Under the pieces are notes generated by a model. It was not told the origin of the DNA, did no database searches, and saw only the letters and a program-made list of their open reading frames with translations. Source: a virus. Taken from it: a stretch of DNA of 32,263 bases. Shown here one piece after another: positions 11,966 through 27,419 of this stretch; position 1 is the stretch's first letter; each line of letters opens with the position of its first letter. The stretch spans positions 1 through 32,263 of IMG/VR virus record IMGVR_UViG_3300010371_000086; one strand, 5' to 3'. The position numbers and the translations under genes are program-made.

Positions 11966-14900
11966 TTAGTCTCCGACGAAGGAGATTAGGATATCTTGGT
12001 CGAGATTGAGGACGAGCGGCTTCTCAAACGGCTGCACGTTGATCAAGTCTGAACCAGTGATCATTTGCGGGCTGAGCATGATGACGCTAATTACGCCCGG
12101 AACCTTCGCTGCGGTTGCGATGTCAATCAACGCAATCGGCTGACCGACGCCCGTCTTGTTGATGATAGCTGCGACGCTCGACTTGGCCGACTGAGTGATC
12201 AAGTCGGTATTCGCGCCTGAGCGTGCACGCAATGCAATTGACACCTGAATGCGCTTGATAGGAGCACCTTCGATGTTGATGTTCGCACCAGCAGCGACCA
12301 CACCAGGGAATGCACCACTGTCAGCCGGATCGCCGTACTCGACTTGGTTCGTCGCCTTGATGAGGCCCGTGTTGTACTGGTAGCCGTCGATGCCGTTTGC
12401 AACGTCACCACTGAATGCGAGCTTGTCGCGTGCAGTAATGATCGAGCCCGCGGCTGCCGTGATCCATTCGCTTCCTTGCGGTGCCGAAAACTTCAAATCG
12501 GCAAGCGATGGATTTGTAGCGTTCTGAGCGATTGATACGATCTTCTTGACGAAGTGCGAAGGATGCGCCTCGATGTCCTGCACGAGGTTTGCGTCTGTTG
12601 AACCAAGAGCACCAACAGCACCAACAGCTACCGGCGTACGTTGTGAGACGTCGACAGTGAATTCGTAGAGCGAGCCACCAACAGTCAAGCCAGGAACGTC
12701 AGTGACGGTCCATGAGCCGAGGTTGTTAATGTTCCACAAGTTGGTCGAGATTTGGATCGTATCGCCCGGCAATACTGAATTAGGCGAAACAAATACTACG
12801 TCACACTCAGCAACGTTCTGCGGCTCGAAGTTAGGATTCTCGATCCACACACTACCAGGGCTTGAACCCCAGCCAGGAGCAGTCACGTGCACAACGCGGT
12901 AGAGACCGGTGTTGGCGTCTCCAATTTGCGGCATTGAAGTAGGAGCGGCCGGCAACGTGAGGTTAATCCAATCGCCTTCCTTCACGAGAGGCGTGAAGAA
13001 CGGACCACCGCTACGCAATACCCAATCATTCGTGCCGAAAGTTGTATCGCTGATGCAGACGAAATCGCCCTGCTTCTCAAACTTGAGACCGACGTTGCTC
13101 GTGGCCGAGCGCTGCGTGACGACCTTGGTGCCGGCGCCGTTAAAGGTGAACACACCGAGCGTTGACAACGAAGTGAGGTTGGTGCCCGCATCGAACACGC
13201 CGCTCTTCGGCATGACGTTCTCGTTGTCGATGTTCACCCACATACCAGCGTAGAGCGCTAGTGTATTTGCAGCCGGAACGCTCAAGAGCAAAAGGTTGTG
13301 TGACTGAGCTGCTGTGCCCAAAACCTGAGCTGAGGCAGCGTTTGCACCACCACCCTGAACCTGGATTGAGCCAGTCGACCCAGGAAGCAATGAGCTGAGC
13401 TGCACCTTCGTGCCTGCGCTCGATGCCTCAATATCAGCCACCGACGACAAGCCAGTGACAGCAAGCGTGTTGAACCATTCGACGACATTCTCGGTCGTAC
13501 GAGGCACAACGCGGATGATTTCGTTGATCCAATCGCTATTGGTTACGAGCGATGAATCGATTTGGTTCTTGAAGACGATCGTGTAGTTGCCAGCGATTGA
13601 ACCAGGAGCGGTCGTGGTCTTGACGTAATTGATACCGTCAACCAAGTTCGTCCATGCAGGCGAAGCTGCCGCATCCTCCTCAGAGCTGCGATCGATAATG
13701 CCCGTACCAGTGCTGACGAGAGTGCCAGTGACGATCGGATTGTCGAGCGCAGCTACAGCAGAGACGATTGCAGCAGCCGTTTGTTCTGCGTTTGCGAAGA
13801 TACGGAAGTTGGTCGATGCGCCAAGCGGAACGCCCCATTCAACAGTCGTTAGAGCTGAGCCAGAGAACGGAATCGAGCCTGACCAGTCTTGATTGTTGAC
13901 GTTGGTGATATAGATCGGCGGAATGAAGCTGCCGAACGGTTGCTGCGGACCATTGATGAACATATAGTCCGAAACAACGACCGAACCGCCAGCCAGTGAG
14001 GCTTCGCCTGCACTGTCGAAGCTGATCGTGCCCGAGCCCGAGAACGCTGCGACTGAAGCGCTAGCATCTGAATATGTGATAGTCGTAGCAGTACGTGCGG
14101 TGATTGCGTATGCACCTGACGGATAATTGATGTCAGTGCTGTTTACGTAAATAACGTCCGCAACGTTCCAACCGTGATCGAGGCAGCCCGTAGGCAGTGT
14201 CACAGTGAGTGTCGGAGTGTTTGCAGCGCGAGTACCCGAAGCGATCGACATGCCGACGATGTACGTAGCGTCGCCCATGCCTGCCGCATTTGTCGGAACA
14301 ATCCAACCAACACGAGTCGTGCCGCGGATATTGGTGAGCGTGCGATCGGCACCTGATGCGAGCGTGATGCTGACTTCAGTCGTGGTATCTGCGTTGTTCG
14401 AGACTACGACCGATACAGGCTGATTCGATGATTGAGGAACGCTGTAGCGAACCTGCGCATTATTACCGTCAGGCCCGAGACGATAATAGCGCCACAGCAC
14501 TGCACGATTTGCATCAGCAGCCATCGTCTTGCCACGAGCGGCCATGAACACAGCGAAGTCGTCGAACGAATAGTCAAGGCCGAATGCTGCGGCGAGTGAT
14601 GCATTGCCGTTGTCAGCGTCGACGAAGTCGTTGGTCACGCCATACGTCGGTGATGTCGGCTTGAACGTACGCCACATCGGAATCGAGAAGCGCTTGAGTG
14701 TAACGTCACCATCGACCAACACGCCGAATTGATCGCTCGGCGAGAGCATGAAGCCATTCGCGAACATCATTCGGTCAGTCACCATCCAACGCTGTTCAGG
14801 CGTCGAACGGATATCCATCTCCCAATTCGAAGCATTTGCGAATGCATCCTTGAGAGTCGTGGTGAAACCGAATTGCGATCCCCACGCTGTATCAGTCAAT

Positions 14901-17605
14901 GGAGTGAGACCGAGGTCGTCATTACGCAGACCATATAGCGTCAATCCAGTGTCGGGAATCTCATTCGGCAGACGTTCAATAACGATATCATCCTGCGTAC
15001 CACCATTCGTCACGTAACGAGCCAAGTGGAAGTCAGGCGTGCCGACCAACGAATTGCCAGACTCGATCGAAGCCATGTGGCCGGTCAGGTTCTTCGTTGC
15101 ATTCGCTACAGGCAGACCGAGCTTCTGTGCCTCAACGTCTGCTGCTACCAATGCGATATCGCCATTCACATCCGAGAATGTGTTAGTGCGAACGCGGAGA
15201 ATATTAGTCCGATATGTAGTGGCGAGAGCACCAACCAGCTCCTCATCCAAAGCATTGGCAAGAGACGTAGCGGTGTACAGCGAGCCTGATGAGATCGTGT
15301 CGTGCTGTAGAGGCAGATCGGTAGACGTACGGCAGAACTGGATACCATTGCTCGTGAGAGTGATTGGTCCACCAGAGTACGTCGTATTCTTTTCAAAATA
15401 GAAATACTGGAAACCGGTGTCGACAGCCGATACGCGGTATGATCCGGTCAATGCTCCTAGAGCACTATCCCAGAACACGACCCAATCACCAGCCAATAGA
15501 TTCTGGAATACAGCCGTACCTGCATCACACTTGATGAGGAAGCCGTACGCAGTAGCCGTAGCAGTGAATGTGAGAGGAGTGCCGTTGTTGACACCAGTCG
15601 GGATCACAGCAGCATCAGCGTCCATAGCCAGCCACAAATTCGCCTGAGCCGCTAGGTTGAGCGTTGAGATCGAAGGCGACTGGAGGAAGGCTCGGGTTTG
15701 TGTCGAGCCTGCTGAAAGCTTCTGGCCCACTGTGAGCGGTGTTTGAAGAGCCAGCTCGCCAGTGTTGCGATTGAGTGTGTAATCGCTGTTGGCACCCAGT
15801 GATACCTGCGTATCGAACATGTGGTTCGAAACAAGATCACCCGATACGATCTGCACCTTGCCATTGGCTGAGTGCTGACGGTTCGAGGCTACGACCAACA
15901 CACCAGCCTCTACGCTCGCAGTGATGCCTGGGATACGGTAGTTGAAAACCTTGGCCCATGCATCGAGCGTATTGCGGCCTAGCGTAGTGAAGCCCGTATT
16001 AGCGTCAATGAAGTCTTGATCGGTGAACTTCGGGAATTGCGCTGCATCGAATGAGAGCTGGATACCATCGACCTTCACCACGAGGGATTGAGGCGATGTC
16101 ATCGTAGCCCATTCAGCGATCGGCTTAGACAATGCCTCGGCCGTACGCCCATCCTTAGATAGGAGTCGGTCATCGAGGTAAAGTCGCATCGTATCCACAC
16201 GACCAGCAGGGAATAGCAGCGCTGAATTAGCGTCATCGCCATCCGTGACAGTCTGTAGCTGGATCGATTCGTTGGTATCAGCCTTAGCCGTTACAACAAC
16301 GAGCGTGCCTGAGCCTGCCGTGCGTGCTTGCCAATTAAGGGTCGTATCTGCATTGATAGATGCAACCACTTCGTAGGCTGTAGCGTTCGTGATGTTTCTG
16401 AAGCCATCCACATCGAACGTGTGCTCAGTCACTACGCCATCCACAGCGAAGCTCAGCTTCATTCCTGAAGCGAGTACGTATGGTGCTGCGTTGAGTGACT
16501 GGATGTATGCCTTGGCGATCGGACGTTGTGAGACTTTAAAGTATTGCTCACCACCGAGGGCTGAATCAATGAGTGATTCAATAGCCACACCCTGCGCACG
16601 CATCTCATAGCCCGTACCGTCATCGATATACAGCGTGGTCGGGTAACCCTGACGAGTAACCACCGACGCTGAGAGCACGCGCTTATTTTCGTCACTCGAA
16701 GTAACACCGACGGCAAACGTCTGGATAGCCAGTGCCGTGCCCTTGGTGCGTGACTGAGTTGCTTGACGAATACGCTCGCGGTAGGTGTCATCATCTTCAA
16801 CGCTCGTACCGTTTGTAAGCGGTAGAGGATTAGAGACTTGTGCACCAGTGAATGGGCCATTACCTGATCCCCATCCATTGATAGCGAGCGCAGCTACGTT
16901 GCCCGAGATGCCCGGAACAATCGCTACGACCAATACACCCGTGATCGAAGTCTCGCCATCAGGAATGGTCGAGTTGAACAACGTCTTGAATTGGACTGCT
17001 GCTGCGGTATTCCCTTGAGGTGTTTGTACTACCGTACCCGCTGGAATTTGGCGGTCGCCACCTTGCGCAAGGACCACGCCCTCCCCTTGGTTGTGAAAAC
17101 GAAGGGTAGGTGTGCTCAATGCTAGTGTCCAATACGTGCCGTTATTTGTCTTGCTCGTGTAAGCAAGTGGGCCTTCGAATTGGGGTGTGTTGCGTCCAAG
17201 ATAAACAGATCCCGTGTTCGGATATAGTGACGCATCAACGACGTTAATGCTAGTCGAGCCTACAATCGGAGCCGGTGTTCCCTGAAAGATCTTTGAAGCA
17301 ACTTTTGTAAATGAAGAATCGGTGATCGTAACTGTACCCGAGGCAGGGTTCTGCGGAATGCGAGGAGTGCTCTCATCCGCACCGATACGATCAAGCGCAT
17401 CCCCTGAAGCGTTGTCGAGAGACTGGGCTTCGAGGAGTGTGAAGATATCCTCACTGCTACGAAGCTGAGACTGTGCGACAGATTCTAGGATACTGAGAAC
17501 GGGCGAGCCCACCTTCAGCGAACGCAGACCAAAGCGTGACAAAAACGCATCGATCATGTCGCCGATAATTTGTGAGTACGAACGAGGTACTGGGATCGTC
17601 GCCAT
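11966..17605 (-). CDS. Giant baseplate wedge protein, gpJ (P2)/gp6 (T4)-like, with a very large internal insertion
   Basis: The 1879-residue product starts with a typical baseplate-J N-terminus: SPVLSILESVAQSQLRSSED, then SGDALDRIGAD and ASGTVTITDS. The family core continues to about residue 370, including AGTVVQT, SVEDDDTYRERI and the GY-x-TTLYIDDGTG region. The C-terminal family segment, about 1690-1879, includes IKRIQVSIALRARSG, VAAIINKTGVGQPI and a PGV-x-SV-x-MLSP stretch. Relatives are usually about 300-660 residues. Here more than 1200 residues of beta-rich, adhesin-like sequence lie between the two halves, and this insertion probably protrudes from the wedge. It is the first gene of the left minus-strand tail block, and the plus-strand cassette lies directly upstream. 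The start codon has no strong Shine-Dalgarno. Confidence 0.88.
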   Translation of the reverse strand: MATIPVPRSYSQIIGDMIDAFLSRFGLRSLKVGSPVLSILESVAQSQLRSSEDIFTLLEAQSLDNASGDALDRIGADESTPRIPQNPASGTVTITDSSFTKVASKIFQGTPAPIVGSTSINVVDASLYPNTGSVYLGRNTPQFEGPLAYTSKTNNGTYWTLALSTPTLRFHNQGEGVVLAQGGDRQIPAGTVVQTPQGNTAAAVQFKTLFNSTIPDGETSITGVLVVAIVPGISGNVAALAINGWGSGNGPFTGAQVSNPLPLTNGTSVEDDDTYRERIRQATQSRTKGTALAIQTFAVGVTSSDENKRVLSASVVTRQGYPTTLYIDDGTGYEMRAQGVAIESLIDSALGGEQYFKVSQRPIAKAYIQSLNAAPYVLASGMKLSFAVDGVVTEHTFDVDGFRNITNATAYEVVASINADTTLNWQARTAGSGTLVVVTAKADTNESIQLQTVTDGDDANSALLFPAGRVDTMRLYLDDRLLSKDGRTAEALSKPIAEWATMTSPQSLVVKVDGIQLSFDAAQFPKFTDQDFIDANTGFTTLGRNTLDAWAKVFNYRIPGITASVEAGVLVVASNRQHSANGKVQIVSGDLVSNHMFDTQVSLGANSDYTLNRNTGELALQTPLTVGQKLSAGSTQTRAFLQSPSISTLNLAAQANLWLAMDADAAVIPTGVNNGTPLTFTATATAYGFLIKCDAGTAVFQNLLAGDWVVFWDSALGALTGSYRVSAVDTGFQYFYFEKNTTYSGGPITLTSNGIQFCRTSTDLPLQHDTISSGSLYTATSLANALDEELVGALATTYRTNILRVRTNTFSDVNGDIALVAADVEAQKLGLPVANATKNLTGHMASIESGNSLVGTPDFHLARYVTNGGTQDDIVIERLPNEIPDTGLTLYGLRNDDLGLTPLTDTAWGSQFGFTTTLKDAFANASNWEMDIRSTPEQRWMVTDRMMFANGFMLSPSDQFGVLVDGDVTLKRFSIPMWRTFKPTSPTYGVTNDFVDADNGNASLAAAFGLDYSFDDFAVFMAARGKTMAADANRAVLWRYYRLGPDGNNAQVRYSVPQSSNQPVSVVVSNNADTTTEVSITLASGADRTLTNIRGTTRVGWIVPTNAAGMGDATYIVGMSIASGTRAANTPTLTVTLPTGCLDHGWNVADVIYVNSTDINYPSGAYAITARTATTITYSDASASVAAFSGSGTISFDSAGEASLAGGSVVVSDYMFINGPQQPFGSFIPPIYITNVNNQDWSGSIPFSGSALTTVEWGVPLGASTNFRIFANAEQTAAAIVSAVAALDNPIVTGTLVSTGTGIIDRSSEEDAAASPAWTNLVDGINYVKTTTAPGSIAGNYTIVFKNQIDSSLVTNSDWINEIIRVVPRTTENVVEWFNTLAVTGLSSVADIEASSAGTKVQLSSLLPGSTGSIQVQGGGANAASAQVLGTAAQSHNLLLLSVPAANTLALYAGMWVNIDNENVMPKSGVFDAGTNLTSLSTLGVFTFNGAGTKVVTQRSATSNVGLKFEKQGDFVCISDTTFGTNDWVLRSGGPFFTPLVKEGDWINLTLPAAPTSMPQIGDANTGLYRVVHVTAPGWGSSPGSVWIENPNFEPQNVAECDVVFVSPNSVLPGDTIQISTNLWNINNLGSWTVTDVPGLTVGGSLYEFTVDVSQRTPVAVGAVGALGSTDANLVQDIEAHPSHFVKKIVSIAQNATNPSLADLKFSAPQGSEWITAAAGSIITARDKLAFSGDVANGIDGYQYNTGLIKATNQVEYGDPADSGAFPGVVAAGANINIEGAPIKRIQVSIALRARSGANTDLITQSAKSSVAAIINKTGVGQPIALIDIATAAKVPGVISVIMLSPQMITGSDLINVQPFEKPLVLNLDQDILISFVGD

Positions 17606-19649: not shown

Positions 19650-20584
19650 TGAGCCAAGGCAAAGATCCATTTTGGGATGCACAAGTAAAGCGTATTGCTG
19701 AATTGATGGAAGAATCAATTCGCTCAGGCAAGCCGATCGTCACTGCTGTACAGGTTCCTCGCACGCCTGAGAAGGTCGACATCTTTTTCGATCCACAAGG
19801 GCGAGACTTCGACAAGATCACTCTACCGAGAGTGAAGGGCTTCACGCATCCTCGTCAGCCTCTCGTCGCTGCGATGATCCCTCCGCACGCGATGCCGGCA
19901 CACGTGATTCCTGGTGGCATCGGTCCTGTGAGCATGAACGCGCCCTATACGGGTGGTCGCACGAGCCCGCAGGCAATCCAGCACGCTCAGTCGAATGGCT
20001 GGGATGTGCTCGCACCAAAGGGCGATGAGCTATTCATCGACATCGACTCCGATGCGCAGTACCAAGCGTATCTGCGTGCGAAGCCGGTGTTCGAGCAGAA
20101 CATCATGGCATTTGTCGCTGAAGCGGTCATTCCTTCGAAGTCAGGCACGCCGGGCAAGAAGCATATCTACATTCGCCTCTCAAGGGCTCTGGGGTCGAGA
20201 AAGACGCGCATCACGTACCAAGCGATGTTGCAATCAGATGCAGTACGAGAGATCTTGAGCCAGTCACGCTACGACGCTGGCGATCCCGAGCCGGTCCTCT
20301 TCTTCGAGAATCCTGGTTGTGCACCGAAGGGCTTCGGCCGCTATCTGTATCAGGCTCCTGCGGTCGGATCGATTACGGTCAGTGCATCTCCAGCACCTAA
20401 GCAGAGCTTGGGCTACTTCACCAAGCCTTCGGCACCAGCACAGCCCAAACCGGCTGTGTTCTCTTCTGCACCAGCACCAGCAGATCCGAACGATCCCACG
20501 AAGTGGCCGCACAAGTGCGATCGTTGTGGTGGACCAGCCTACAACGGTTTGTTCAGCTCCGATTGCAAGAATAAGTGCCACTAG
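19649..20584 (+). CDS. Primase/AEP-like protein with C-terminal zinc finger (putative)
   Basis: This 311-residue protein is the largest of the cassette. The central part (about 112-225) reads NGWDVLAPKGDELFIDIDSD, then SKSGTPGKKHIYIRL, an Arg-rich QAMLQSDAVREIL helix and PVLFFEN. The D131-x-D133 pair followed by Ser...His (S165, H172) resembles motifs I and II of archaeo-eukaryotic primase folds, and similar uncharacterised phage proteins share the LQSD..RE / LFFE pattern. Activity is not shown. A Pro/Ala-rich linker (about 245-288) leads to a zinc finger (C290, C293, C306, C310) closely similar to the one ending the 130-residue protein at 25663. It could act in priming or nucleic-acid repair; confidence in the coding call is high and in the function low. 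Confidence 0.75.
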   Translation: MSQGKDPFWDAQVKRIAELMEESIRSGKPIVTAVQVPRTPEKVDIFFDPQGRDFDKITLPRVKGFTHPRQPLVAAMIPPHAMPAHVIPGGIGPVSMNAPYTGGRTSPQAIQHAQSNGWDVLAPKGDELFIDIDSDAQYQAYLRAKPVFEQNIMAFVAEAVIPSKSGTPGKKHIYIRLSRALGSRKTRITYQAMLQSDAVREILSQSRYDAGDPEPVLFFENPGCAPKGFGRYLYQAPAVGSITVSASPAPKQSLGYFTKPSAPAQPKPAVFSSAPAPADPNDPTKWPHKCDRCGGPAYNGLFSSDCKNKCH

Positions 20585-20586
20585 TC

Positions 20587-20605
20587 GATTCGCTATAAGG
20601 GGCAC
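20587..20605 (+). promoter_or_regulatory. TATAAG element 6
   Basis: GATTCGCTATAAG is followed by GGGCAC and the ATG at 20606, with 6-nt spacing. It starts 2 nt after the stop codon of the preceding gene. Confidence 0.7.
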
Positions 20606-21076
20606 ATGAGTGCCCTTTTGCCGGAATCGAAGACATCACTCAGATATCTGGTCGACGATTACGATATGCGACAGATCCGCGTGGCATTTGGCCTGGGCGG
20701 ATTCGAAGAGATCGGTAGTGGTCGCCATCGCGTCACCTTCCGCAATCCCTACACCAGTAGCGTGATCAAGGTGCCTCACTCCAGAGCGGGTGAGGATGCG
20801 AACAAGAACGAATACGACATGTTCGTTCGCTTGAAAGATCCTCGTCTCGCTCGCTGCTCAATCGAAGTGTTCGAGGGTGTCAAGATCCTCCACATGGAAG
20901 AGGTCGTCGACGCTGCGCCCTGCGCTTTGAGTGCGGGAGAATTCTATCGGAAGAACCGTCAGAAGTTCGAGCCGTGGTGTGGTGAGTGTGATGGCGGTCA
21001 GTGCGGCTGGACTCGTGATGGACGACTCGTGGCGTGGGACTACGCGAACCACGAGTACGTTTTCAAGAGGAAATAG
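20606..21076 (+). CDS. Minimal protein-kinase-like protein (putative, catalytic loop missing)
   Basis: This 156-residue protein shows a kinase-like N-lobe pattern: a glycine-containing loop (EEIGSGRHRVTF, 35-45), a Lys in a VIKVP strand (K55), a Glu in the following helix (N68-E69-Y70) and a hinge-like LHMEEV (96-100). Near the end, WTRDGRLVAWDYAN (136-149) could correspond to the metal-binding DFG-type strand, with D145. No HRD-type catalytic loop is visible and the length is about half that of a kinase domain, so it is probably a pseudokinase-like or shrunken fold. CGECDGGQC may bind metal. The target is unknown. It is the first gene of a unit with its own TATAAG element; its TAG overlaps the next GTG. 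Confidence 0.7.
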   Translation: MSALLPESKTSLRYLVDDYDMRQIRVAFGLGGFEEIGSGRHRVTFRNPYTSSVIKVPHSRAGEDANKNEYDMFVRLKDPRLARCSIEVFEGVKILHMEEVVDAAPCALSAGEFYRKNRQKFEPWCGECDGGQCGWTRDGRLVAWDYANHEYVFKRK

Positions 21077-21240
21077 TGCTACGCGGCTGCCCACACCACG
21101 AGATTTGTCGCAATGAGATCCAGAACTGGCTTCGTTGGATGAAAGCGCCTTGGATCACGAGGGACGTACACGAAGTTCCTCCTCCAGGCTTGCCTCCATG
21201 CTGGGATGCCCTCCAGATCTATTGGACAGATTCGATATAA
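21076..21240 (+). CDS. Small hypothetical protein, 54 residues
   Basis: The GTG at 21076 overlaps the preceding TAG (TAGTG) and has AGAGGA just upstream, so I start it here rather than at an earlier ATG that would overlap by 42 bases. The protein is rich in Trp, Pro and Cys (CPHHEIC, NWLRWMKAPW), and CPHHEIC could bind a metal. The function is unknown. The TAA stop lies inside the next TATAAG element. Confidence 0.55.
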   Translation: MLRGCPHHEICRNEIQNWLRWMKAPWITRDVHEVPPPGLPPCWDALQIYWTDSI

Positions 21241-21251
21241 GGAATACAAAT
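21229..21251 (+). promoter_or_regulatory. TATAAG element 7 (variant)
   Basis: GATTCGATATAAG has one change in the CGC core. Ten bases separate TATAAG from the ATG at 21252. The stop codon of the preceding gene lies inside it. Confidence 0.6.
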
Positions 21252-21593
21252 ATGGAAATCTCGTACGGCAGCAAGCGCAAGGATGGGTCGATCTCGTTTT
21301 ACCTCGGTGAGCAAATCACGAGAGAACAGCTCGAAACTGTCGTCGAGAAGCATCGTGAAGGCTTGTTGATGACAGGTGGTGATGTGCATCTCGATCCCAC
21401 GCATACCATCCTCAGCTACAACGCGAAGGCTCCAGGCTGCATCATGCAGCATCTCTATCACGATCCCTCGCCGTCCAATGCATTCTGTCGCAATCGTGCA
21501 GTCGCGATTTGGTTCGACGACATGTACAAGCCGACGTGGCCTGACTGGATGCTACGCGACATGATGATGCAATCAAAGCTGGTCGAAGAATAG
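21252..21593 (+). CDS. Hypothetical protein, 113 residues
   Basis: I recognise no family. The start is set at the ATG after the TATAAG element; a longer frame opens upstream but would overlap the 54-residue gene. A beta-hairpin-like N-terminus (SYGSKRKDGSISFYLGEQ) precedes a helix (TREQLETVVEKHREG). Residues 42-75 include His and Cys (HLDPTHTIL, PGCIMQHLYHD) that could form a metal site. The C-terminus is helical and Met-rich (WMLRDMMMQSKL). It is a single-gene unit. Confidence 0.7.
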   Translation: MEISYGSKRKDGSISFYLGEQITREQLETVVEKHREGLLMTGGDVHLDPTHTILSYNAKAPGCIMQHLYHDPSPSNAFCRNRAVAIWFDDMYKPTWPDWMLRDMMMQSKLVEE

Positions 21594-21611
21594 ATCCGCT
21601 ATAAGAGGCAC
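21593..21611 (+). promoter_or_regulatory. TATAAG element 8, with separate Shine-Dalgarno
   Basis: GATCCGCTATAAG is followed by AGGCAC as elsewhere, but the ATG is 18 nt downstream at 21624 and has its own AGAGG Shine-Dalgarno. The block is therefore conserved even where it is not the ribosome-binding site. Confidence 0.75.
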
Positions 21612-21623
21612 ACAGAGGTCGAA

Positions 21624-22181
21624 ATGGAAAACAAGGAATCAGAGAAGTTCGTCAAGTCGTCGGTTCGTTGGACGCCTGCTCTCAAGCGCAAGGCTCTCGT
21701 GATCGCTCTCGAAGCGGAGCGCACTGCGGAGCGTCTCGACGCTGGTGTCGAGAAGAAGTTCGGCACGGGCGAAGCCTTCGATGAGAAGGGTCAGCCGGTC
21801 TGTGCATTCGGTTGCGTGCTCTCGGCAGCTCACTGCTTGCCCGAGGAAGTGCAGCGCGTGATGAAGATGTCCAAGGAAGAGCTGAAGAAGCTCATCGAAG
21901 AGGACGAAGAGCTGTACGCCATCGAGAACAACGTCGAGGCGTTCGCCAAGTCGCTCGGGCTCAACGAGGAAGATGTCGAGTACGGCAAGACCGAGACGGT
22001 CACGGGCGAAAGCGGTTACCCGTATTCGTCGACGCCGCCCAGCACGCTGCGTCTCACGTGCGATCGCGTGGGCGAAGCCAACGACGACACCAAGTCGGGC
22101 TGGGAGCGTCGCCGCAAGAAGATCGCGAAGGCTCTTCGCAACTTCTCGAAGGCTCTCCTCCAGGATTCCGGCCTTCTGTAA
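21624..22181 (+). CDS. Hypothetical acidic/helical protein, 185 residues
   Basis: I recognise no family with confidence. The N-terminal half is helical (RKALVIALEAERTAERLDAG) and contains PVCAFGCVLSAAHCLP near residue 60, a Cys-rich helix. This is followed by a strongly acidic, Lys-rich helix (SKEELKKLIEEDEELY), which may form a coiled coil, and a basic C-terminus (WERRRKKIAKALRNF). The TAA stop overlaps the ATG of the next gene. It is the first gene of a three-gene unit that has a normal leader and Shine-Dalgarno after the TATAAG element. Confidence 0.7.
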   Translation: MENKESEKFVKSSVRWTPALKRKALVIALEAERTAERLDAGVEKKFGTGEAFDEKGQPVCAFGCVLSAAHCLPEEVQRVMKMSKEELKKLIEEDEELYAIENNVEAFAKSLGLNEEDVEYGKTETVTGESGYPYSSTPPSTLRLTCDRVGEANDDTKSGWERRRKKIAKALRNFSKALLQDSGLL

Positions 22182-22366
22182 TGTTCGAGCACGGCGGCAA
22201 TACCCACAATTGCGGCTGCCCCATGGGCAACTGCGATTGTCCTACGGTGGTTCAAAAACCGCTGTGTGAGAAGCATCCCACCTACAAAGTCCTACGCAAG
22301 CCCACAGCCAAGTGCCTCAAGTGCCATGAGCTGTGGGCTCGCAAGCTCGCTCTCCAGGAACAGTAA
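22181..22366 (+). CDS. Cysteine-rich miniprotein, 61 residues, probable zinc binder
   Basis: The start ATG overlaps the previous stop (TAATG). The protein holds an N-terminal cluster (CGCPMGNCDC, residues 11-20) and a second set of potential ligands (C29, H32, C45, C48, H49), so one or two zinc sites are likely. No family was recognised. The next gene starts one base after its stop. Confidence 0.65.
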   Translation: MFEHGGNTHNCGCPMGNCDCPTVVQKPLCEKHPTYKVLRKPTAKCLKCHELWARKLALQEQ

Positions 22367-22367
22367 C

Positions 22368-22496
22368 ATGCGCGATTGCCACTTCTGCGACGGCACCTTC
22401 TATAGTGCCTATTTCCACGAATGTTGGTGGCATGAGGAATGGTTTTCGTTCTGGAAAGAGCTGTGCAAGTGGGTCTGGTACTTCGGCGGTAGATAG
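22368..22496 (+). CDS. Very small Trp/Cys-rich protein, 42 residues
   Basis: This open frame begins one base after the preceding stop and ends just before a TATAAG element. The 42-residue product has CHFC (4-7), C19 and C33, and eight aromatic residues in the last two thirds (FSFWKELCKWVWYF), so it may fold around zinc or sit on a membrane surface. The exact fit between neighbours and the coupling are the evidence that it is real; the function is unknown. Confidence 0.55.
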   Translation: MRDCHFCDGTFYSAYFHECWWHEEWFSFWKELCKWVWYFGGR

Positions 22497-22514
22497 ATTC
22501 GCTATAAGGGCCAC
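22496..22514 (+). promoter_or_regulatory. TATAAG element 9, with separate Shine-Dalgarno
   Basis: GATTCGCTATAAG is followed by GGCCAC, then AGGAGG, and the ATG at 22527, 18 nt after TATAAG. The layout is identical to element 8. Confidence 0.75.
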
Positions 22515-22526
22515 AGGAGGCCCAAA

Positions 22527-22847
22527 ATGGCGAAGAAGCTCAGTCAGGCAGACAAGGATCTGAATGCTCTGATCGCGAAGAAGGGGCGTGTCACCGCGTC
22601 TCGCGTGATCCTCATGGAGCGTGTCGCGATCCTGGATGCACAACTCGCGAACATCAACGACAGCATCTACACCTACCGTCAAGAGAAGTCTCGCGTCGAA
22701 GGCGAAACCCTCACCGCTACCGAGCGCTCGATGGTTCTCGCTCGTGACTACATCCCCGCCATCAAGTCCGTGCGTGCTCGCACGAACCTCGGTCTGAAGG
22801 AAGCGAAGGATCTGGTCGACGCTTACCGTCAGAAGAACGGGCTGTAG
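22527..22847 (+). CDS. Coiled-coil protein ending in a ribosomal L7/L12-like helical hairpin
   Basis: In this 106-residue protein, residues 1-60 are helical and charged. Residues 76-99 read IPAIKSVRARTNLGLKEAKD plus LVDA. This matches the core of the bL12 C-terminal domain, where bacteria have the pattern IKAVR..TGLGLKEAKDLVE. In the ribosome this surface contacts translation factors such as EF-Tu and EF-G. The rest of the bL12 domain is absent, so this is not a full ribosomal protein. It may be a stalk mimic that binds a host factor, or use the hairpin for other protein contacts (inference). The product at 23090 has a related C-terminus. The Shine-Dalgarno AGGAGG is strong, suggesting high expression. 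Confidence 0.75.
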   Translation: MAKKLSQADKDLNALIAKKGRVTASRVILMERVAILDAQLANINDSIYTYRQEKSRVEGETLTATERSMVLARDYIPAIKSVRARTNLGLKEAKDLVDAYRQKNGL

Positions 22848-22849
22848 TC

Positions 22850-23047
22850 ATGGCAAAGCAACTCGTCGTGTGCCTCTTCTGCGGAAGGGACCAGACTACT
22901 ATTCCCGACGAAGAGACAATGGTTCAGTCGGGCAATGCGTCACAGGGCATTTGTTCGATCTGCATTCCGCAGTGCCAAGCCTTGTGCGCAGCTAGTGCGC
23001 GTAAGAAGGGCTGGAAGAAGAGCACCAAGCTGAGTCTGGTGAAGTAA
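22850..23047 (+). CDS. ClpX-type zinc-finger miniprotein, 65 residues
   Basis: The start lies 2 nt after the L12-like gene, so the two are co-translated. C8/C11 (VCLFCGRDQ) and C35/C38 with a further C42 (GICSICIPQC) match the C-x2-C...C-x2-C-x3-C pattern of the ClpX N-terminal zinc-binding domain (family pattern C.FCGK.Q ... ICDECV.LC). In ClpX this domain dimerises and docks substrates and adaptors. The AAA+ part is missing, and the loop between the Cys pairs is 23 residues rather than about 18. A free domain of this type could compete for ClpXP adaptors (inference). The C-terminus is basic (RKKGWKKSTK). Confidence 0.7.
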   Translation: MAKQLVVCLFCGRDQTTIPDEETMVQSGNASQGICSICIPQCQALCAASARKKGWKKSTKLSLVK

Positions 23048-23067
23048 TCACCAGAAGTTTCCCAACT

Positions 23068-23089
23068 AATTCGCTATAAGGGCAACGTC
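23068..23089 (+). promoter_or_regulatory. TATAAG element 10
   Basis: AATTCGCTATAAG is followed by GGCAACGTC and the ATG at 23090, 9 nt after TATAAG. It heads a six-gene unit that includes coaD. Confidence 0.7.
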
Positions 23090-23431
23090 ATGTCCAAATC
23101 GAAGAAGAGCCAAGAGCAAAAGAATCTCGAACGCGAGATCGAGAAGGTGCTCAAGCAGAAGGACAAGCTTGTGGCAAAGCGTCTCCGTATGGAGATCGCG
23201 AACCGGATCATCGAGCGTCAGATGAATGCTCTCTCCAACACACTCAATCTCCTCATCAACAAGATGATGGAAGCGCCCGTCGCTCTCACACAAGAAGAGC
23301 TTCGTCTCGCCCAGGTCAACCGTGGCCGCGCGATCATGGCGGTCCACGACCGTCTGAACCTGCCGATGGATGCAGCTCGTGCAATGGTCGACGACGCGCT
23401 TCGAGCGTCTCCGCACGAAGAGGAGAACTAA
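23090..23431 (+). CDS. Coiled-coil protein, divergent relative of the L7/L12-like protein
   Basis: Residues 1-60 of this 113-residue protein are Lys/Glu-rich and strongly helical. Residues 77-105 (RAIMAVHDRLNLPMDAARAM onward) match the layout of the L12-like hairpin in the 22527 product (A-I..V..R.NL...A...MVD). The two probably derive from one ancestral gene with the same design: an N-terminal coil, then the hairpin. The key LGLKEAK residues are changed here, so the binding partner may differ. It is the first gene of a unit that continues through membrane proteins and coaD. Confidence 0.7.
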   Translation: MSKSKKSQEQKNLEREIEKVLKQKDKLVAKRLRMEIANRIIERQMNALSNTLNLLINKMMEAPVALTQEELRLAQVNRGRAIMAVHDRLNLPMDAARAMVDDALRASPHEEEN

Positions 23432-23432
23432 C

Positions 23433-23633
23433 ATGAAGTCGTTCACGAAAGCGATCTGGTGGATCGTGCTCCTCGTCGGCATCGGCGGCATGGTCGCCAT
23501 GTGCTGCGGCTGCGTCGACGGTGCTTCAATCGAAGCCTGTGGCAAGGCGTGCGGTTCGGTTGGCGTGAGGTTCGTCAACTCCGAGCTGTGCCAGTGCAAT
23601 CCGCAGCCTTCCAAGGCAGAGAGCTGCAAGTAG
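23433..23633 (+). CDS. Exported or membrane-anchored Cys-rich miniprotein, 66 residues
   Basis: I start at the ATG one base after the preceding stop. A basic N-terminus and a hydrophobic segment (about 8-23) are followed by MCCGC. VAMC resembles a lipobox, but Met before the Cys is unusual, so it may be a lipoprotein or have a non-cleaved anchor. The mature part has further Cys (36, 40, 53, 55, 65), suggesting disulfides outside the cytoplasm. The function is unknown. The next gene begins directly after its stop. Confidence 0.65.
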   Translation: MKSFTKAIWWIVLLVGIGGMVAMCCGCVDGASIEACGKACGSVGVRFVNSELCQCNPQPSKAESCK

Positions 23634-23894
23634 ATGGGCCCGATTCTTATTATCCTTCTCGGCCTACTATGGGTTGTGCTGGGCTTCTTCTGCTTCGGCT
23701 TTTGTCATCAATTCTTCGACAACAGAAGCGATGTGGACGAGGAAGATCTGAGGGGAATCGCCTTCACGACTCTGTTCGCACCAATTGTCGCATTCATCGG
23801 TCTCTTTGTGGGTCTTTGCGTGTGGCTGTGGAAGGGCTTACTGGGTCCGATTGTCGATCTCGGTGCGAAGCTCGCTAAGAAGGTGCAAGAATGA
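23634..23894 (+). CDS. Two-pass membrane protein, 86 residues
   Basis: Two hydrophobic segments (about 2-24 and 41-66) flank a short acidic loop (DNRSDVDEEDLR), and the tail is amphipathic and basic (LGAKLAKKVQE). It could be a holin-like or other inner-membrane protein, but it lies far from the endolysin and nothing in it is specific. Its ATG follows the previous stop without a gap, and its end overlaps the next ATG (ATGA). Confidence 0.65.
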   Translation: MGPILIILLGLLWVVLGFFCFGFCHQFFDNRSDVDEEDLRGIAFTTLFAPIVAFIGLFVGLCVWLWKGLLGPIVDLGAKLAKKVQE

Positions 23895-24112
23895 TTGCTG
23901 TACCCATCATATTCGGAACTATCTTCTACGTGCTCCTCATGGTTTTGTCTGCTTCTATCATGGGTAAGATCACTGGAGGACGGTGCCAAACTGCTGATGG
24001 GGAAATCGGCGTATTCTTCGCCGTGCTCATCCCCATTATCGGTATCATGGTCGGAATTGTCGTAGGTGTCTGGTGGATCTGCACCGAAGCTTATCAAATT
24101 GGAGGCAGATAG
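23891..24112 (+). CDS. Two-pass membrane protein, 73 residues
   Basis: Hydrophobic segments at about 2-24 and 40-64 surround a short loop (KITGGRCQTADGEIG). It overlaps the preceding membrane gene (ATGA) and the following coaD-like gene (TAGTG), so all three are coupled. The two membrane proteins may act as a pair. A holin role cannot be excluded. Confidence 0.65.
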   Translation: MIAVPIIFGTIFYVLLMVLSASIMGKITGGRCQTADGEIGVFFAVLIPIIGIMVGIVVGVWWICTEAYQIGGR

Positions 24113-24624
24113 TGACACCGATCTACGCAGGCACGTTCGATCCCTTGACCAAGGGGCACATGAACGTCATCGACATGATGGTCAGGCACTTCGGCAAGGG
24201 CGTGGTGTTGCTCGCAACCAATCCGAACAAGCAGCACATGCTGACGGGTGAAGAGCGACACAACCTCATCCGCGATGCATTGCACCGCGACTACAATGCG
24301 ATACTGAAGTACAAGGTCGGCGTCTCAGCCACGTACGGATACGTCGCTGACTGGGCCCGCGATCTGTACGGCGACGAAGCCGTGCTCGTGCGTGGCGTGC
24401 GCAACGAGAAGGACTATCTCTACGAGAAAGAGATCGCCGACTTCAATCGCAAGCGTGCGCATGTCGAGACAATCCTGATTCCGGCCAACGACAACTACCA
24501 GCACGTCAGCTCGACGCAGATCAAGGAATGGATGCGCGTGGGCAACTGGGAAGAGATCAAGCGCTACACGCCGGAGTCGGTGATGCAGTACCTCATGCAG
24601 AAGATGATTCAGGAGAAGAAGTAA
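24112..24624 (+). CDS. coaD: Phosphopantetheine adenylyltransferase (CoaD-like)
   Basis: The 170-residue product starts at a GTG overlapping the previous stop (TAGTG). It has the full nucleotidyltransferase signature of CoaD, which transfers AMP from ATP to 4'-phosphopantetheine in coenzyme A synthesis: GTFDPLTKGH (7-16) with the T/HxGH motif, K40, VLVRGVR (91-97), YEKEIADFNRK (104-114) and HVSSTQIKEW (131-140). The spacing T8-H16-K40 equals that of E. coli CoaD T10-H18-K42. Length matches the bacterial enzyme (about 160). A related nucleotidyltransferase such as NMN adenylyltransferase is possible, but the RG-x-R and E-Y/YE regions fit CoaD best. A CoaD-like enzyme in a phage would be an auxiliary metabolic gene. 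It sits between membrane miniproteins and a pair of unknown paralogues. Confidence 0.88.
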   Translation: MTPIYAGTFDPLTKGHMNVIDMMVRHFGKGVVLLATNPNKQHMLTGEERHNLIRDALHRDYNAILKYKVGVSATYGYVADWARDLYGDEAVLVRGVRNEKDYLYEKEIADFNRKRAHVETILIPANDNYQHVSSTQIKEWMRVGNWEEIKRYTPESVMQYLMQKMIQEKK

Positions 24625-25055
24625 TGTCACTTCGTCATGACATCAAGTATTCCTGGGCTCCGTACGAGCGCGACTACGATTACGACTTTTTCGGCAAGCA
24701 CGTGTTCTATCCGCCGAAGGTCACTCTCGGTGCGTACACGATGAAGGAATGGAAAGACATGAACAAGAGTCTCAAGGACTGCACGACGGAAGAGATCCGT
24801 GCAGAGCTGAAGAAGCGTGAAGAGCGCGACCAGCACATGAAGGACATGACGTGGCAGAAGGTCATGAACGTGACCAACGATCAGTGGCCGGGCGGCATGA
24901 CGTTCCACCGCATTGCCAAGGCCGCTGCGATGCTCGGCTACAAGTACTTCGTGGTCAAGGGCTACCAGAACGTCTACGCCGTCGGAGAGCCGATGTGGAG
25001 CGAGCCCGGCTTCCACTTCAAGTCGCTGCCGATCGACAAGAGCGAGATTCGCTAA
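24624..25055 (+). CDS. Hypothetical protein, 143 residues, paralogue of the next gene
   Basis: The ATG overlaps the coaD stop (TAATG). An aromatic, Asp-rich N-terminus (YERDYDYDFFGKHVFYPP) is followed by a domain shared with the 25068 product: TTEEIRAELKKREERD, a TWQKVMNV segment, and LGYKYFVVKGYQNVYAV near the end. The family is unknown. The shared domain (helix, TW, LGYKYFV, YAV) probably folds as a small alpha/beta unit. The stop TAA lies inside the next upstream element. Confidence 0.75.
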   Translation: MSLRHDIKYSWAPYERDYDYDFFGKHVFYPPKVTLGAYTMKEWKDMNKSLKDCTTEEIRAELKKREERDQHMKDMTWQKVMNVTNDQWPGGMTFHRIAKAAAMLGYKYFVVKGYQNVYAVGEPMWSEPGFHFKSLPIDKSEIR

Positions 25056-25067
25056 AAGAGGTACATC
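25046..25067 (+). promoter_or_regulatory. TATAAG element 11 (TAAAAG variant)
   Basis: GATTCGCTAAAAG is followed by AGGTACATC and the ATG at 25068, 9 nt after the core. One base differs from TATAAG. It appears to be the last copy, and the eight genes after it are coupled. Confidence 0.65.
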
Positions 25068-25355
25068 ATGAGTATCGTGCTAAAGAACTTCACCACCGAA
25101 GAGCTGAAGGCCGAAGTGCAGCGTCGTGAGGATCGTGAGAAGATCCTCAAAGAGCTGACGTGGAAGAACGTGCTCAACATCGGAGCCAAGGCGGCAACCG
25201 AATGGGTGCAACTCCAGGAGTGCGCGAAGCACGCAGTCAAGCTCGGCTACAAGTACTTCGTCATCGACACGTACCCGCACCTGTACGCCGTCGACAACAA
25301 GCAGTGGTGCGGCTACCAGGAAGTCAAGTTCGCTTCGGTCTGCGACGTCAAGTGA
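25068..25355 (+). CDS. Hypothetical protein, 95 residues, tandem paralogue of the 24624 gene
   Basis: The whole protein aligns with the C-terminal two thirds of the preceding product: LK-x-x-TTEE, RRE-x-R, LTWKNVLN, LGYKYFVI and LYAV occur in the same order and spacing. It lacks the aromatic N-terminal extension. The LGYKYF core is retained while the middle has diverged, suggesting an old duplication with selection on the core. Its TGA overlaps a downstream GTG (GTGA). Confidence 0.75.
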   Translation: MSIVLKNFTTEELKAEVQRREDREKILKELTWKNVLNIGAKAATEWVQLQECAKHAVKLGYKYFVIDTYPHLYAVDNKQWCGYQEVKFASVCDVK

Positions 25356-25666
25356 GCAAGCTCGGCTACATAAGGGTGATGGTCGGGATCGCTTTCTTGT
25401 ACGCATGCAAGAAGAGCTATTTCAGATTCCAGAAGCTCGCCCTCGTGTTCCGTCGTCTCGGCTGGCGCATCGCTGGTCGTGGCAAGGCGCCGCCGCTCAC
25501 ATACGCGGTACACATCTACGCGTGCGTGCGTTGCCATGCTGAGCATAAGCTCGCTACGACAGACATCAGTCACATCGCAAAACCAATGGAAGAGATGTAC
25601 TGCTCCAAGTGTCGCGATCGCATGGAAATGGGCTGGATGCAATCGACTGTGGAGATCGTCCGATGA
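25352..25666 (+). CDS. Zinc-ribbon protein, 104 residues
   Basis: I start at the GTG that overlaps the preceding stop (GTGA); an ATG at 25379 with AAGGG just upstream is an alternative that would remove nine residues. C58/C61 (YACVRCH) and C84/C87 (YCSKCRDR) form a likely zinc ribbon. The N-terminal half is basic and aromatic (KKSYFRFQKLALVFRRLGWR) and may bind nucleic acid (inference). The end overlaps the next ATG (ATGA). Confidence 0.65.
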   Translation: MSKLGYIRVMVGIAFLYACKKSYFRFQKLALVFRRLGWRIAGRGKAPPLTYAVHIYACVRCHAEHKLATTDISHIAKPMEEMYCSKCRDRMEMGWMQSTVEIVR

Positions 25667-26055
25667 TTATCGACAATCTGGAGAAGTGGGCGCGCGATAA
25701 CGCCGGCCGCATGGTCAAGGTCAAATCGATGAGCCATCCGACCGGACGTGTGGTTGGTTTCAAACGCGAAACCGGCTACCTCTGTCTCGACGGAGGATCT
25801 GGGCGACTATCGGCAACGAGCACGACCGTGTTCGTGATCGACGCGGATAGAAAGGCTCCGGTCTATCGCTGGGTCAGCCCGATGAGCATTGTCGAGTTTC
25901 TCGACGGGCCCATTAAGAAGGCCGCGAGTGTTTCAGGCAGGACCATCGCCGAATTTCCTCACGTGTGTCCTGCGTGCAAGGGGCCTGCGTACATCGGATT
26001 CAACACGACCGTTGCGTGTCAGAAGAATTGTGGAGTGAAGAGTGGGCTTCTTTGA
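25663..26055 (+). CDS. Hypothetical protein, 130 residues, with C-terminal zinc finger shared with the 19649 product
   Basis: The start overlaps the previous TGA (ATGA). The N-terminal part (HPTGRVVGFKRETGYLCLDG) looks like a small SH3-like or OB-type beta-barrel, but no family is certain. The C-terminal C102/C105...C119/C123 finger (VCPACKGPAYIGF) matches the tail of the 311-residue protein at 19649, including the GPAY residues between the Cys pairs. The shared module suggests a common partner or a common origin of the tails. Confidence 0.7.
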   Translation: MIIDNLEKWARDNAGRMVKVKSMSHPTGRVVGFKRETGYLCLDGGSGRLSATSTTVFVIDADRKAPVYRWVSPMSIVEFLDGPIKKAASVSGRTIAEFPHVCPACKGPAYIGFNTTVACQKNCGVKSGLL

Positions 26056-26512
26056 TCGATTCTTGACTCGCGAAATCAAGTCGCAGGCTGGTCGCGTCGT
26101 ATTCCGTCGATGGCGTGCCATCAATACGCGATGGTTCCAAGTGCTGATCCATGCGGTCTACGACCACGATCGTGACCATTTCATGCACGACCATCCGTGG
26201 AACTTCCTGAGCTTCATCCTGAAGGGTGGCTACATGGAGTTGTACTGCGATCAGAACAGCATCGTGAGTACGCGTGTGGCGAGTCCATTCACGTTCAAGC
26301 GCATGCAGGCAGCCGGCGAGTACCACAAGATCCTGCGCCTGTTGAACGGCACGAGCTGGAGCTTGGTCGTCACTGGCAAGCGTGAACGCACGTGGGGCTA
26401 TCTCACCAACCAAGGCTGGATGAACAACGAGAAGTATCGCCGCCTGAAGGCTTTGGGCGTATTCGGTCCAGAGCCCAGCAAGCGCTACTCAATTTCACCA
26501 TCACGTCGATGA
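26042..26512 (+). CDS. Cupin-like protein, 156 residues
   Basis: The GTG start lies inside the preceding gene (14-nt overlap), with GGAG upstream. Residues 40-66 contain HDHPWNFLSFILKGGYMELY, a cupin-type first motif with H49 and H51 and a possible E66. A later H95 (GEYHKILRL) and a WSLVVTGKRERTWGY strand pair could complete the metal site. Small cupin-like proteins of this type occur in phage genomes; their reactions are mostly unknown. It may be an oxygenase-like, isomerase-like or simply sugar-binding cupin. The fold call is moderate and no substrate is proposed. Confidence 0.7.
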   Translation: MGFFDRFLTREIKSQAGRVVFRRWRAINTRWFQVLIHAVYDHDRDHFMHDHPWNFLSFILKGGYMELYCDQNSIVSTRVASPFTFKRMQAAGEYHKILRLLNGTSWSLVVTGKRERTWGYLTNQGWMNNEKYRRLKALGVFGPEPSKRYSISPSRR

Positions 26513-26757
26513 AGATCCAAACGCAACCAGAAGTGCCTTGCCCGCGTGGCTGCGGCCTTATGGAAGGTCGTGGCGAGTGCGGAGCTATGGACCTCTATCA
26601 CTGCGTTGCATGCGGCAAGATGGAGTGGAAGCGCTACCAGCAGCGTCGCGGCGCAGTCTACAAGACTGCCGGCGATGATCCGATCATGGTCACTGCGGTG
26701 TCGAATTGCTACTCCGCTGACTTCGTCATCGTCGCTGACGAGTACAAGTACGAATGA
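26509..26757 (+). CDS. Zinc-ribbon miniprotein, 82 residues
   Basis: The ATG overlaps the preceding TGA (ATGA). CPRGCG (11-16) and CVACG (32-36) form a C-x3-C...C-x2-C site, with C24 in between. The C-terminal half has no recognised motif. This is one of several zinc-binding miniproteins in the cassette and may bind RNA, DNA or a protein. Confidence 0.65.
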   Translation: MKIQTQPEVPCPRGCGLMEGRGECGAMDLYHCVACGKMEWKRYQQRRGAVYKTAGDDPIMVTAVSNCYSADFVIVADEYKYE

Positions 26758-26945
26758 TCTGGACGCTCATCATAGGCTTCTTTGCTGTGCTTGAGCTTGC
26801 GGTCATCATTCGCACCGGTCCGAAGAAATATTTCTTCGGTGAGCATCAGTATTGGAAAGGTTTCGAGCCAACACCACTCGATCCAGACAAATGCTATTGC
26901 AAATGCCATGAGGATGAGGAAGAGGACGATGATGACGTGGAGTGA
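26754..26945 (+). CDS. Membrane-anchored acidic miniprotein, 63 residues
   Basis: The start overlaps the previous stop (ATGA). One transmembrane segment (2-19) is followed by a basic patch (RTGPKKYFF), a CYCKCH cluster (47-52) and a tail of almost only Glu and Asp. The layout suggests an inner-membrane anchor exposing a metal-binding or DNA-mimicking acidic tail to the cytoplasm. The function is unknown. Confidence 0.6.
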   Translation: MIWTLIIGFFAVLELAVIIRTGPKKYFFGEHQYWKGFEPTPLDPDKCYCKCHEDEEEDDDDVE

Positions 26946-27189
26946 GATTCAGGAAGCGAAGTACGAATTCATGCGCACGATCGGCACCTACGAGCCGGGT
27001 ATGAAGATCGATCTGCCCGAATGGTTCAAGGGCGTCGGCATTGGATTCGACATCGGCAAGAACGAATACCTGCTACGCGTCAACGTGCGTAACGATGCAG
27101 ACGTGGGCCTAGCCGAGGCCGCAATCGAGCGCATGGGCTACACGGGCGGATACGAGATCCACGCCGTGGGCGATATCATAGCGCTATGA
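26929..27189 (+). CDS. Hypothetical protein, 86 residues
   Basis: Two adjacent ATG codons (26929 and 26932) follow GAGG, and either may be used. The start lies within the acidic tail of the preceding gene. The protein looks like a small alpha/beta fold: helix (WSEIQEAKYEFMRTIG), strands (YLLRVNVRND), helix (VGLAEAAIERMG) and a final strand. A ferredoxin-like or ACT-like fold is possible but not supported by motifs. Confidence 0.65.
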   Translation: MMTWSEIQEAKYEFMRTIGTYEPGMKIDLPEWFKGVGIGFDIGKNEYLLRVNVRNDADVGLAEAAIERMGYTGGYEIHAVGDIIAL

Positions 27190-27404
27190 GAATGACGATG
27201 AACGCAATCGAGTTTGCCAAGCGCCATGCTGAAGTGTCGCCGAACGCGAGGCATCGGCAGCCACGCATTGACGCGTTCGCCGCGACCCGGCCGGACGACG
27301 AGCAACGCAGCTATTCGGGGTGGGCTGTTGAATTTGCCACGTGGGAGAACCCGAGCGGCGAATGCGAGGGCATCAAGGCGCTCTGCCCGTGCGGCGACGA
27401 GTGA
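27186..27404 (+). CDS. Small hypothetical protein, 72 residues
   Basis: This is the last gene of the plus-strand cassette, starting with an ATGA overlap. Codon use is more GC-rich than its neighbours. The C-terminus ends in CEGIKALCPCGDE, a possible small metal site; the N-terminal part is basic. Only 15 nt separate it from the convergent end of the baseplate gene, and I see no hairpin terminator there. Confidence 0.55.
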   Translation: MRMTMNAIEFAKRHAEVSPNARHRQPRIDAFAATRPDDEQRSYSGWAVEFATWENPSGECEGIKALCPCGDE

Positions 27405-27419
27405 GAACTACCAGAATCG

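What the first reader, a model, noticed from the sequence alone, without database searches (positions are those of the whole stretch)
24112..24624. Phage-encoded CoaD-like enzyme
All key CoaD motifs and spacings are present. A CoA biosynthesis step in a phage is uncommon and would be an auxiliary metabolic gene; it could boost CoA or be repurposed for another nucleotidyl transfer, for example NAD-related. It lies between membrane miniproteins and unknown paralogues rather than with nucleotide genes.
Basis: partly seen in the sequence, partly recalled or inferred. Interest (0 to 1): 0.65.

Follow-up and report, generated by a model that had tools for sequence, protein, structure and literature searches.

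The report
Phage-borne coenzyme A biosynthesis gene (CoaD)
A virus of bacteria related to Myxococcus phage Mx1 carries an intact-looking gene for the penultimate enzyme of coenzyme A synthesis, inserted with other cargo genes between two tail-baseplate genes; such genes were already known from other large phages, so this is a well-supported new member rather than a new kind of thing.

Summary
ORF 24112-24624 (+; GTG start, GGAGG six bases upstream, 170 aa) passes NCBIfam's CoaD equivalog cut-off (TIGR01510, 110.6 vs 103.3 bits) and scores only 36.7 (cut-off 112.45) as an NMN adenylyltransferase. The 50 best PDB matches of its AlphaFold model (pLDDT 96) are all CoaD/PPAT, and the catalytic and phosphopantetheine-contacting residues of E. 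coli/H. pylori PPAT are kept, apart from Ala for Pro8. The NAD-enzyme alternative is not supported. The carrier is a virus: a 71-kb contig holds the same region at 99.9% identity, and structural genes are syntenic with Myxococcus phage Mx1. CoaD lies in a 9.8-kb opposite-strand cargo island between two baseplate genes that are direct neighbours in most relatives. Among Mx1-like phages coaD is sporadic and varies in position, so it is cargo. In other large phages coaD is often fused to, or next to, coaE, and coaD phages usually also carry NAD salvage (NAMPT), which points to coenzyme supply during infection. Phage coaD is already annotated and reported as an auxiliary metabolic gene, so novelty is low. 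Activity, expression and host are untested; no coaE was seen in the available 71 kb.

The parts
24112..24624 (+). coaD-like gene, 170 aa, GTG start
   Evidence: TIGR01510 over cut-off; PDB sequence hits all PPAT; AF2 model and Foldseek; active-site residues kept
24101..24105 (+). Shine-Dalgarno-like GGAGG, 6 bases before the GTG
   Evidence: sequence
23634..23894 (+). hydrophobic miniprotein ORF upstream (86 aa)
   Evidence: ORF list; weak phrog_7899 match, unknown function
23891..24112 (+). hydrophobic miniprotein ORF (73 aa) whose stop codon overlaps the coaD start by one base
   Evidence: ORF list
24624..25055 (+). unknown ORF (143 aa) starting on the last base of the coaD stop codon, paralogue of the next
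25068..25355 (+). unknown ORF (95 aa), paralogue of the previous
   Evidence: 39.5% identity over 81 aa
17606..27419 (+). opposite-strand cargo island between two baseplate genes
   Evidence: the flanking genes are direct neighbours in most Mx1-like relatives; Mx1 has its own island here with coaD, NMNAT-like and NAMPT genes
11966..17605 (-). baseplate J-like gene flanking the island
   Evidence: 54% identity to Mx1 baseplate J over the first 450 aa
27420..29897 (-). baseplate assembly gene flanking the island on the other side
   Evidence: 40% identity to the Mx1 baseplate assembly protein

Best explanation
A functional phage-encoded phosphopantetheine adenylyltransferase (CoaD/PPAT), carried as cargo by an Mx1-like phage. 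Inferred mechanism: during infection the protein works like bacterial PPAT and transfers AMP from ATP to 4'-phosphopantetheine, giving dephospho-CoA and pyrophosphate. Host CoaE (none was seen in the available part of the phage genome) would finish CoA. This would keep the CoA pool up, or bypass host regulation of the PPAT step, while the host is being taken over. Shown by computation: homology, predicted fold, retained active site, phage location, island insertion and patchy distribution. Inferred: activity, expression, and benefit to the phage.
For: TIGR01510 equivalog 110.6 bits over its 103.3 cut-off against 36.7 for TIGR00482 with cut-off 112.45. All 34 PDB sequence hits are PPAT. AF2 pLDDT 96, pTM 0.90; Foldseek top 50 all PPAT, target-normalised TM 0.80-0.94. 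Window residues T8, H16, K40, R94, G95, R97, D101, Y104, E105, N112, S133, S134, T135, K138, E139 sit at E. coli T10, H18, K42, R88, G89, R91, D95, Y98, E99, N106, S128-S130, K133, E134; T10, H18, K42, R88, R91 and S128-S130 are catalytic or substrate residues in PMC12784347. Phage carriage: whole window at 99.9% identity in a 71-kb viral contig, synteny with Mx1. Role in CoA synthesis rather than NAD, by analogy: 22 of 44 coaD-bearing phage records also have CoaE against 0 of 34 Mx1-like records without detected coaD, with coaD-coaE fusions in six (Pfam-checked in three) and adjacent genes in several more (coordinates).
Against: No CoaE was found in the 71 kb available, so the pathway argument rests on other phages. 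E. coli Pro8 is Ala6 here, and mutating Pro8 to Ala in H. pylori PPAT abolished activity (PMC12784347), though Ala is also found in 6 of 83 bacterial CoaDs and 26 of 44 phage CoaDs. The branch is long, with no relative above about 40% identity apart from the same virus. No expression or assay data.
Confidence: 0.85

Rival explanations
1. It is a phage NMN/NaMN adenylyltransferase (NAD salvage) that resembles CoaD.
For: Phages with coaD usually also carry NAMPT (15 of 19 records searched), Mx1 places coaD next to an NMNAT-like gene, and both families share the nucleotidyltransferase fold. In a small tree E. coli NadD fell beside the window and L050.
Against: TIGR00482 and other NMNAT models score far below cut-off; the best sequence and structure neighbours are all PPAT; the PPAT RGxRxxxDxxYE motif and N112 are kept. 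The NadD placement has an end branch of 5 changes per site and is not meaningful. In Mx1 the NMNAT role seems already filled by the neighbouring gene.
Confidence: 0.04
2. A decayed or non-catalytic CoaD kept as a relic or as a structural or regulatory protein.
For: Low identity to all others; Pro8 replaced by Ala; short insertions around 63-68 and 88-91.
Against: No stop or frameshift; identical in two contigs; complete active site despite about 30-38% identity to anything else implies long purifying selection; high-confidence fold.
Confidence: 0.05
3. A host (bacterial) coaD in a misassembled or mixed contig rather than a phage gene.
For: Many 'phage' hits in databases look like host contamination (several short records; an E. 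coli coaD and a run of near-identical bacterial-type contigs).
Against: The gene sits inside a gene-dense island flanked on both sides by phage baseplate genes, and the same arrangement recurs in a second, 71-kb contig at 99.9%; a sequenced isolate, Mx1, has a coaD between the same two genes.
Confidence: 0.01
4. The point of the enzyme is its product dephospho-CoA itself (for example as a 5' cap of phage RNA), or coenzyme repair against a host defence, not general CoA supply.
For: No coaE seen in the window virus, Mx1, G038 or G015; coaD tracks NAD salvage within Mx1-like phages (3 of 3 with coaD against 1 of 15 without, Fisher p=0.005); NAD reconstitution by phages is a known counter-defence (Osterman et al. 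2024, listed in PMC13292451).
Against: No direct evidence for either; host CoaE would convert dephospho-CoA; half of the coaD phages bring coaE, which argues for CoA; no CoA-depleting defence is known to me.
Confidence: 0.05

Closest known systems
Bacterial phosphopantetheine adenylyltransferase CoaD/PPAT (TIGR01510; E. coli CoaD, E. faecalis PPAT 3nd5)
   Same: Fold, approximate length, catalytic and substrate residues, SS(S/T)xxKE motif
   Different: About 30-36% identity; Ala for Pro8; about 6- and 2-residue insertions; GNWE instead of the usual GGDVSxxVP after the SSxxxKE helix
coaD of Myxococcus phage Mx1 (WNM70272.1, OR576727.2)
   Same: Relative with the same structural gene order; coaD on the opposite strand in an island between the same two baseplate genes
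   Different: 31% identity; common origin of the two coaDs neither shown nor rejected (AU p 0.29-0.41); the Mx1 island also has NAMPT and an NMNAT-like gene, and no other window island gene tested had a match in the Mx1 stretch
coaD of viral contig G038 / L050 (IMG/VR 3300019458_000002, 171.7 kb, Mx1-like)
   Same: Sister of the window CoaD in the tree (98/87 and 97/85); shares the (G/N)WE variant; baseplate J 51% identical
   Different: Very long branch; scores 94.8-95.4 bits, under the TIGR01510 cut-off; its coaD lies elsewhere in the genome, not between the baseplate genes
coaD of Dolichocephalovirinae (Brevundimonas/Caulobacter phages), Microcystis phage MaAM05, Lak phages; coaD/coaE auxiliary metabolic genes of snow viruses (PMC11097641)
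   Same: Phage-encoded CoaD already annotated or detectable
   Different: Different phage groups and sequence branches; several coaD phages also carry coaE

Membership tests
CoaD / PPAT (TIGR01510) | Score over the curated equivalog cut-off | tested here: met
   110.6 vs 103.3 bits, profile 3-154 of 155
CoaD / PPAT (TIGR01510) | (T/S)FDPxTxGH ATP-binding motif with catalytic His18 | tested here: met
   GTFDPLTKGH, H16; His invariant in all 83 bacterial rows
CoaD / PPAT (TIGR01510) | 4'-phosphopantetheine phosphate ligands T10, K42, R88 | tested here: met
   T8, K40, R94; role of these residues from PMC12784347
CoaD / PPAT (TIGR01510) | R91, D95, E99, N106 and SS(S/T) active-site residues | tested here: met
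   R97, D101, E105, N112, S133-S134-T135
CoaD / PPAT (TIGR01510) | PPAT fold | tested here: met
   AF2 pLDDT 96; the 50 best PDB matches are all PPAT
CoaD / PPAT (TIGR01510) | Hexameric assembly and adenylylation of 4'-phosphopantetheine | not testable with these tools
   needs purified protein
NMN/NaMN adenylyltransferase (TIGR00482, TIGR01527, TIGR01526) | Score over curated cut-off | tested here: not met
   36.7 vs 112.45; 22.3 vs 181.2; 21.5 vs 341.15 bits
Phage auxiliary metabolic gene | Host-type metabolic gene on a contig with phage structural genes on both sides | tested here: met
   flanking baseplate genes homologous to Mx1, second contig
Phage auxiliary metabolic gene | Expressed and changes host metabolism in infection | not testable with these tools
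   no transcript or metabolite data
Mx1-like phages | Homologous baseplate and tail genes in the same order as Mx1 | tested here: met
   baseplate assembly 40%, baseplate J 46%/33%, kelch protein 33%, two more at 39% and 44%, in order

The most novel reading that the evidence does not exclude
In Mx1-like and other large phages coaD and the NAD-salvage genes (NAMPT, NMNAT) form one coenzyme-rebuilding cargo set that restores CoA or dephospho-CoA as well as NAD when a host defence or takeover drains them; the coaD part would imply an unknown CoA-directed defence or a use of dephospho-CoA in RNA capping.
Probability: 0.07. Interest if true: 0.75.

Novelty: new member of a known kind. Interest (0 to 1): 0.33.

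Why it matters
It adds a second case, in a relative of Myxococcus phage Mx1, of a CoA biosynthesis gene stored in a cargo island between two baseplate genes. It also supports the view that large phages supply coenzymes (CoA and NAD) in infection. Mx1 is an isolated phage of a laboratory-tractable host, so the question of what a phage gains from coaD could be tested by deletion.

Tried and rejected
A tree with NadD, NadR and an NMNAT-like outgroup was discarded: outgroup branches of 3-10 changes per site make it uninformative, so family was decided by curated profiles, diagnostic residues and fold. A clade of all Mx1-like coaDs is neither supported nor rejected (AU p 0.21-0.41), so one or several acquisitions cannot be told apart. 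A Myxococcota donor was sought in 141 genomes; the best identities (up to 40%) are hardly better than for other bacteria or phages, so no donor is named and the host stays unknown. Short 'phage' records with coaD (Enterococcus, Listeria, Salmonella, E. coli, faecal clones) and contigs L039 and L065-L099 look like host contamination or flanking host DNA and were not used as phage evidence. No tRNA or Rfam element lies in the window. The Mx1 gene annotated as NMN adenylyltransferase (WNM70263.1) matches no NCBIfam model at E<=1e-6, while the one annotated 'cytidylyltransferase' (WNM70271.1) matches NMNAT models, below their cut-offs.

Full report
Observation. The frame 24112-24624 on the + strand encodes 170 aa from a GTG start with GGAGG six bases upstream. 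It scores 110.6 bits against the NCBIfam CoaD equivalog TIGR01510 (cut-off 103.3) and 36.7 against TIGR00482 for nicotinate/nicotinamide nucleotide adenylyltransferase (cut-off 112.45). Pfam gives the general cytidylyltransferase-like domain. All 34 PDB sequence matches at E<=0.001 are phosphopantetheine adenylyltransferases. PHROGs places it in a phage family of unknown function, phrog_29208.

Fold and active site. An AlphaFold model built on 82 aligned sequences has mean pLDDT 96 and pTM 0.90. The 50 best Foldseek matches in the PDB are all PPAT. In an alignment with 83 bacterial and 44 other phage CoaDs, the window protein keeps the residues studied as catalytic or substrate-binding in H. 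pylori and E. coli PPAT (T10, H18, K42, R88, R91, S128-S130, the last as Thr; PMC12784347), plus D95, Y98, E99, N106 and E134. The one departure is Ala for Pro8, which is common in phages (26 of 44) and rare in bacteria (6 of 83). A (G/N)W(E/R/Q/D) segment after the SSxxxKE helix is found in the window protein, in 10 of the 44 phage proteins and in 1 of the 83 bacterial ones; its meaning is unknown.

The carrier. The window is a virus record; a second IMG/VR contig of 71,188 bases holds the whole window at 99.9% identity with an identical coaD. The minus-strand structural genes match Myxococcus phage Mx1 (OR576727.2, 169.6 kb; long contractile tail per PMC10720576) in order: baseplate assembly 40%, baseplate J 46%/33%, kelch protein 33%, then 39% and 44%. 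In the phage collection only Mx1 matched the J protein over most of its length, but IMG/VR gave about 55 clear relatives.

The island. In most of those relatives the baseplate assembly gene abuts baseplate J with under about 150 bases between. In some there is 0.5-1 kb, and in L187, L201 and L231 there is about 2.5-7 kb. Mx1 has about 6.2 kb and the window 9.8 kb of opposite-strand genes there. So this is a place where cargo is gained or lost, and coaD is part of that cargo in both Mx1 and the window virus. The other window island genes tested have no match in the 49-kb Mx1 stretch searched.

Distribution. Of 38 records searched with TIGR01510 (36 Mx1-like, plus G037 and G038), four had a CoaD: the 71-kb copy of the window virus and G037 over cut-off, G038 (L050) and G015 below it. 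G038 and G015 are Mx1-like by their baseplate J, with coaD outside the baseplate site. The window CoaD is sister to that of G038 (98/87 and 97/85); Mx1 and G015 coaDs are unresolved. Hence the gene is sporadic cargo, perhaps acquired more than once.

What it does. The simplest mechanism is ordinary PPAT chemistry. Two lines from other phages bear on its use. First, 22 of 44 coaD-bearing phage records also encode CoaE, and none of 34 Mx1-like records without detected coaD do. In six the two are one protein (Pfam CoaE and nucleotidyltransferase domains in L052, L053, L064). In G040, G041, G048, G054/G058, G056 and LR756501 the genes lie next to each other (coordinates). Second, coaD phages tend to carry a NAMPT/NAPRTase gene (PF04095): 15 of 19 against 1 of 15 Mx1-like phages without coaD (p=3e-5), and within Mx1-like phages 3 of 3 (Mx1, G038, G015) against 1 of 15 (p=0.005). 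In Mx1 the gene after coaD matches NMN adenylyltransferase models below cut-off, and NAMPT follows.

Known or new. Phage coaD is annotated in Brevundimonas, Caulobacter, Microcystis and Myxococcus phages. coaD and coaE are reported among abundant viral auxiliary metabolic genes in snow (PMC11097641), and the Microcystis phage paper (PMC8093824) mentions the enzyme. The window gene is a new, divergent member. The coaD-coaE fusion clade and the baseplate cargo site are the more interesting by-products.

Limits. No biochemical, expression or host data; contigs are incomplete; co-occurrence counts are not corrected for phylogeny.

Noticed in passing
L052, L053, L056, L060, L062, L064 (about 5986-7160 of each locus): A supported phage clade in which CoaD is fused to CoaE (dephospho-CoA kinase) in one polypeptide, analogous to the animal CoA synthase but with a bacterial-type CoaD. 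The literature searches made here did not bring up a report of it.
   Followed up: partly
window 17606-27419; L187, L201, L231; L006: A cargo insertion site between the baseplate assembly gene and baseplate J in Mx1-like phages: most relatives have the genes adjacent, some hold 0.5 to nearly 10 kb of extra sequence, opposite-strand genes where examined.
   Followed up: partly
window 22527-22847: A 106-aa ORF whose C-terminal part matches the ribosomal protein L7/L12 C-terminal domain (PF00542, 30.3 vs 25.9 bits).
   Followed up: no
window 26042-26512: ORF matching phrog_4786 ('cysteine dioxygenase', E=2.9e-28), another possible metabolic cargo gene in the same island.
   Followed up: no
window 17670-18128: HNH endonuclease (PF13392) with a helix-turn-helix at the edge of the cargo island, next to baseplate J; might bear on island mobility.
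   Followed up: no
L009:5989-7146: In a 462-kb uncultured phage (LR756500) CoaD carries a C-terminal extension of about 210 aa with no Pfam match, HD-hydrolase-like by eye.
   Followed up: no
G001 (71-kb copy of the window virus), parts outside the window: By sequence reading only: peptide deformylase-like, KptA/Tpt1-like, CCA-adding-enzyme-like, Nudix and ClpP-like ORFs; an AAA_28 ATPase confirmed by Pfam.
   Followed up: partly
OR576727.2 124119-124673 and 128517-129152: Mx1 annotations look swapped: the gene called NMN adenylyltransferase matches no NMNAT model, while the 'cytidylyltransferase' matches NMNAT models (below cut-off).
   Followed up: partly
G072 (Polyangiaceae) C20:440484-440891 and C22:438325-438783: This myxobacterial genome has two CoaD homologues; the L149 copy groups with CoaDs of large phages (L023, L024, L028, L048), suggesting gene exchange.
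   Followed up: no
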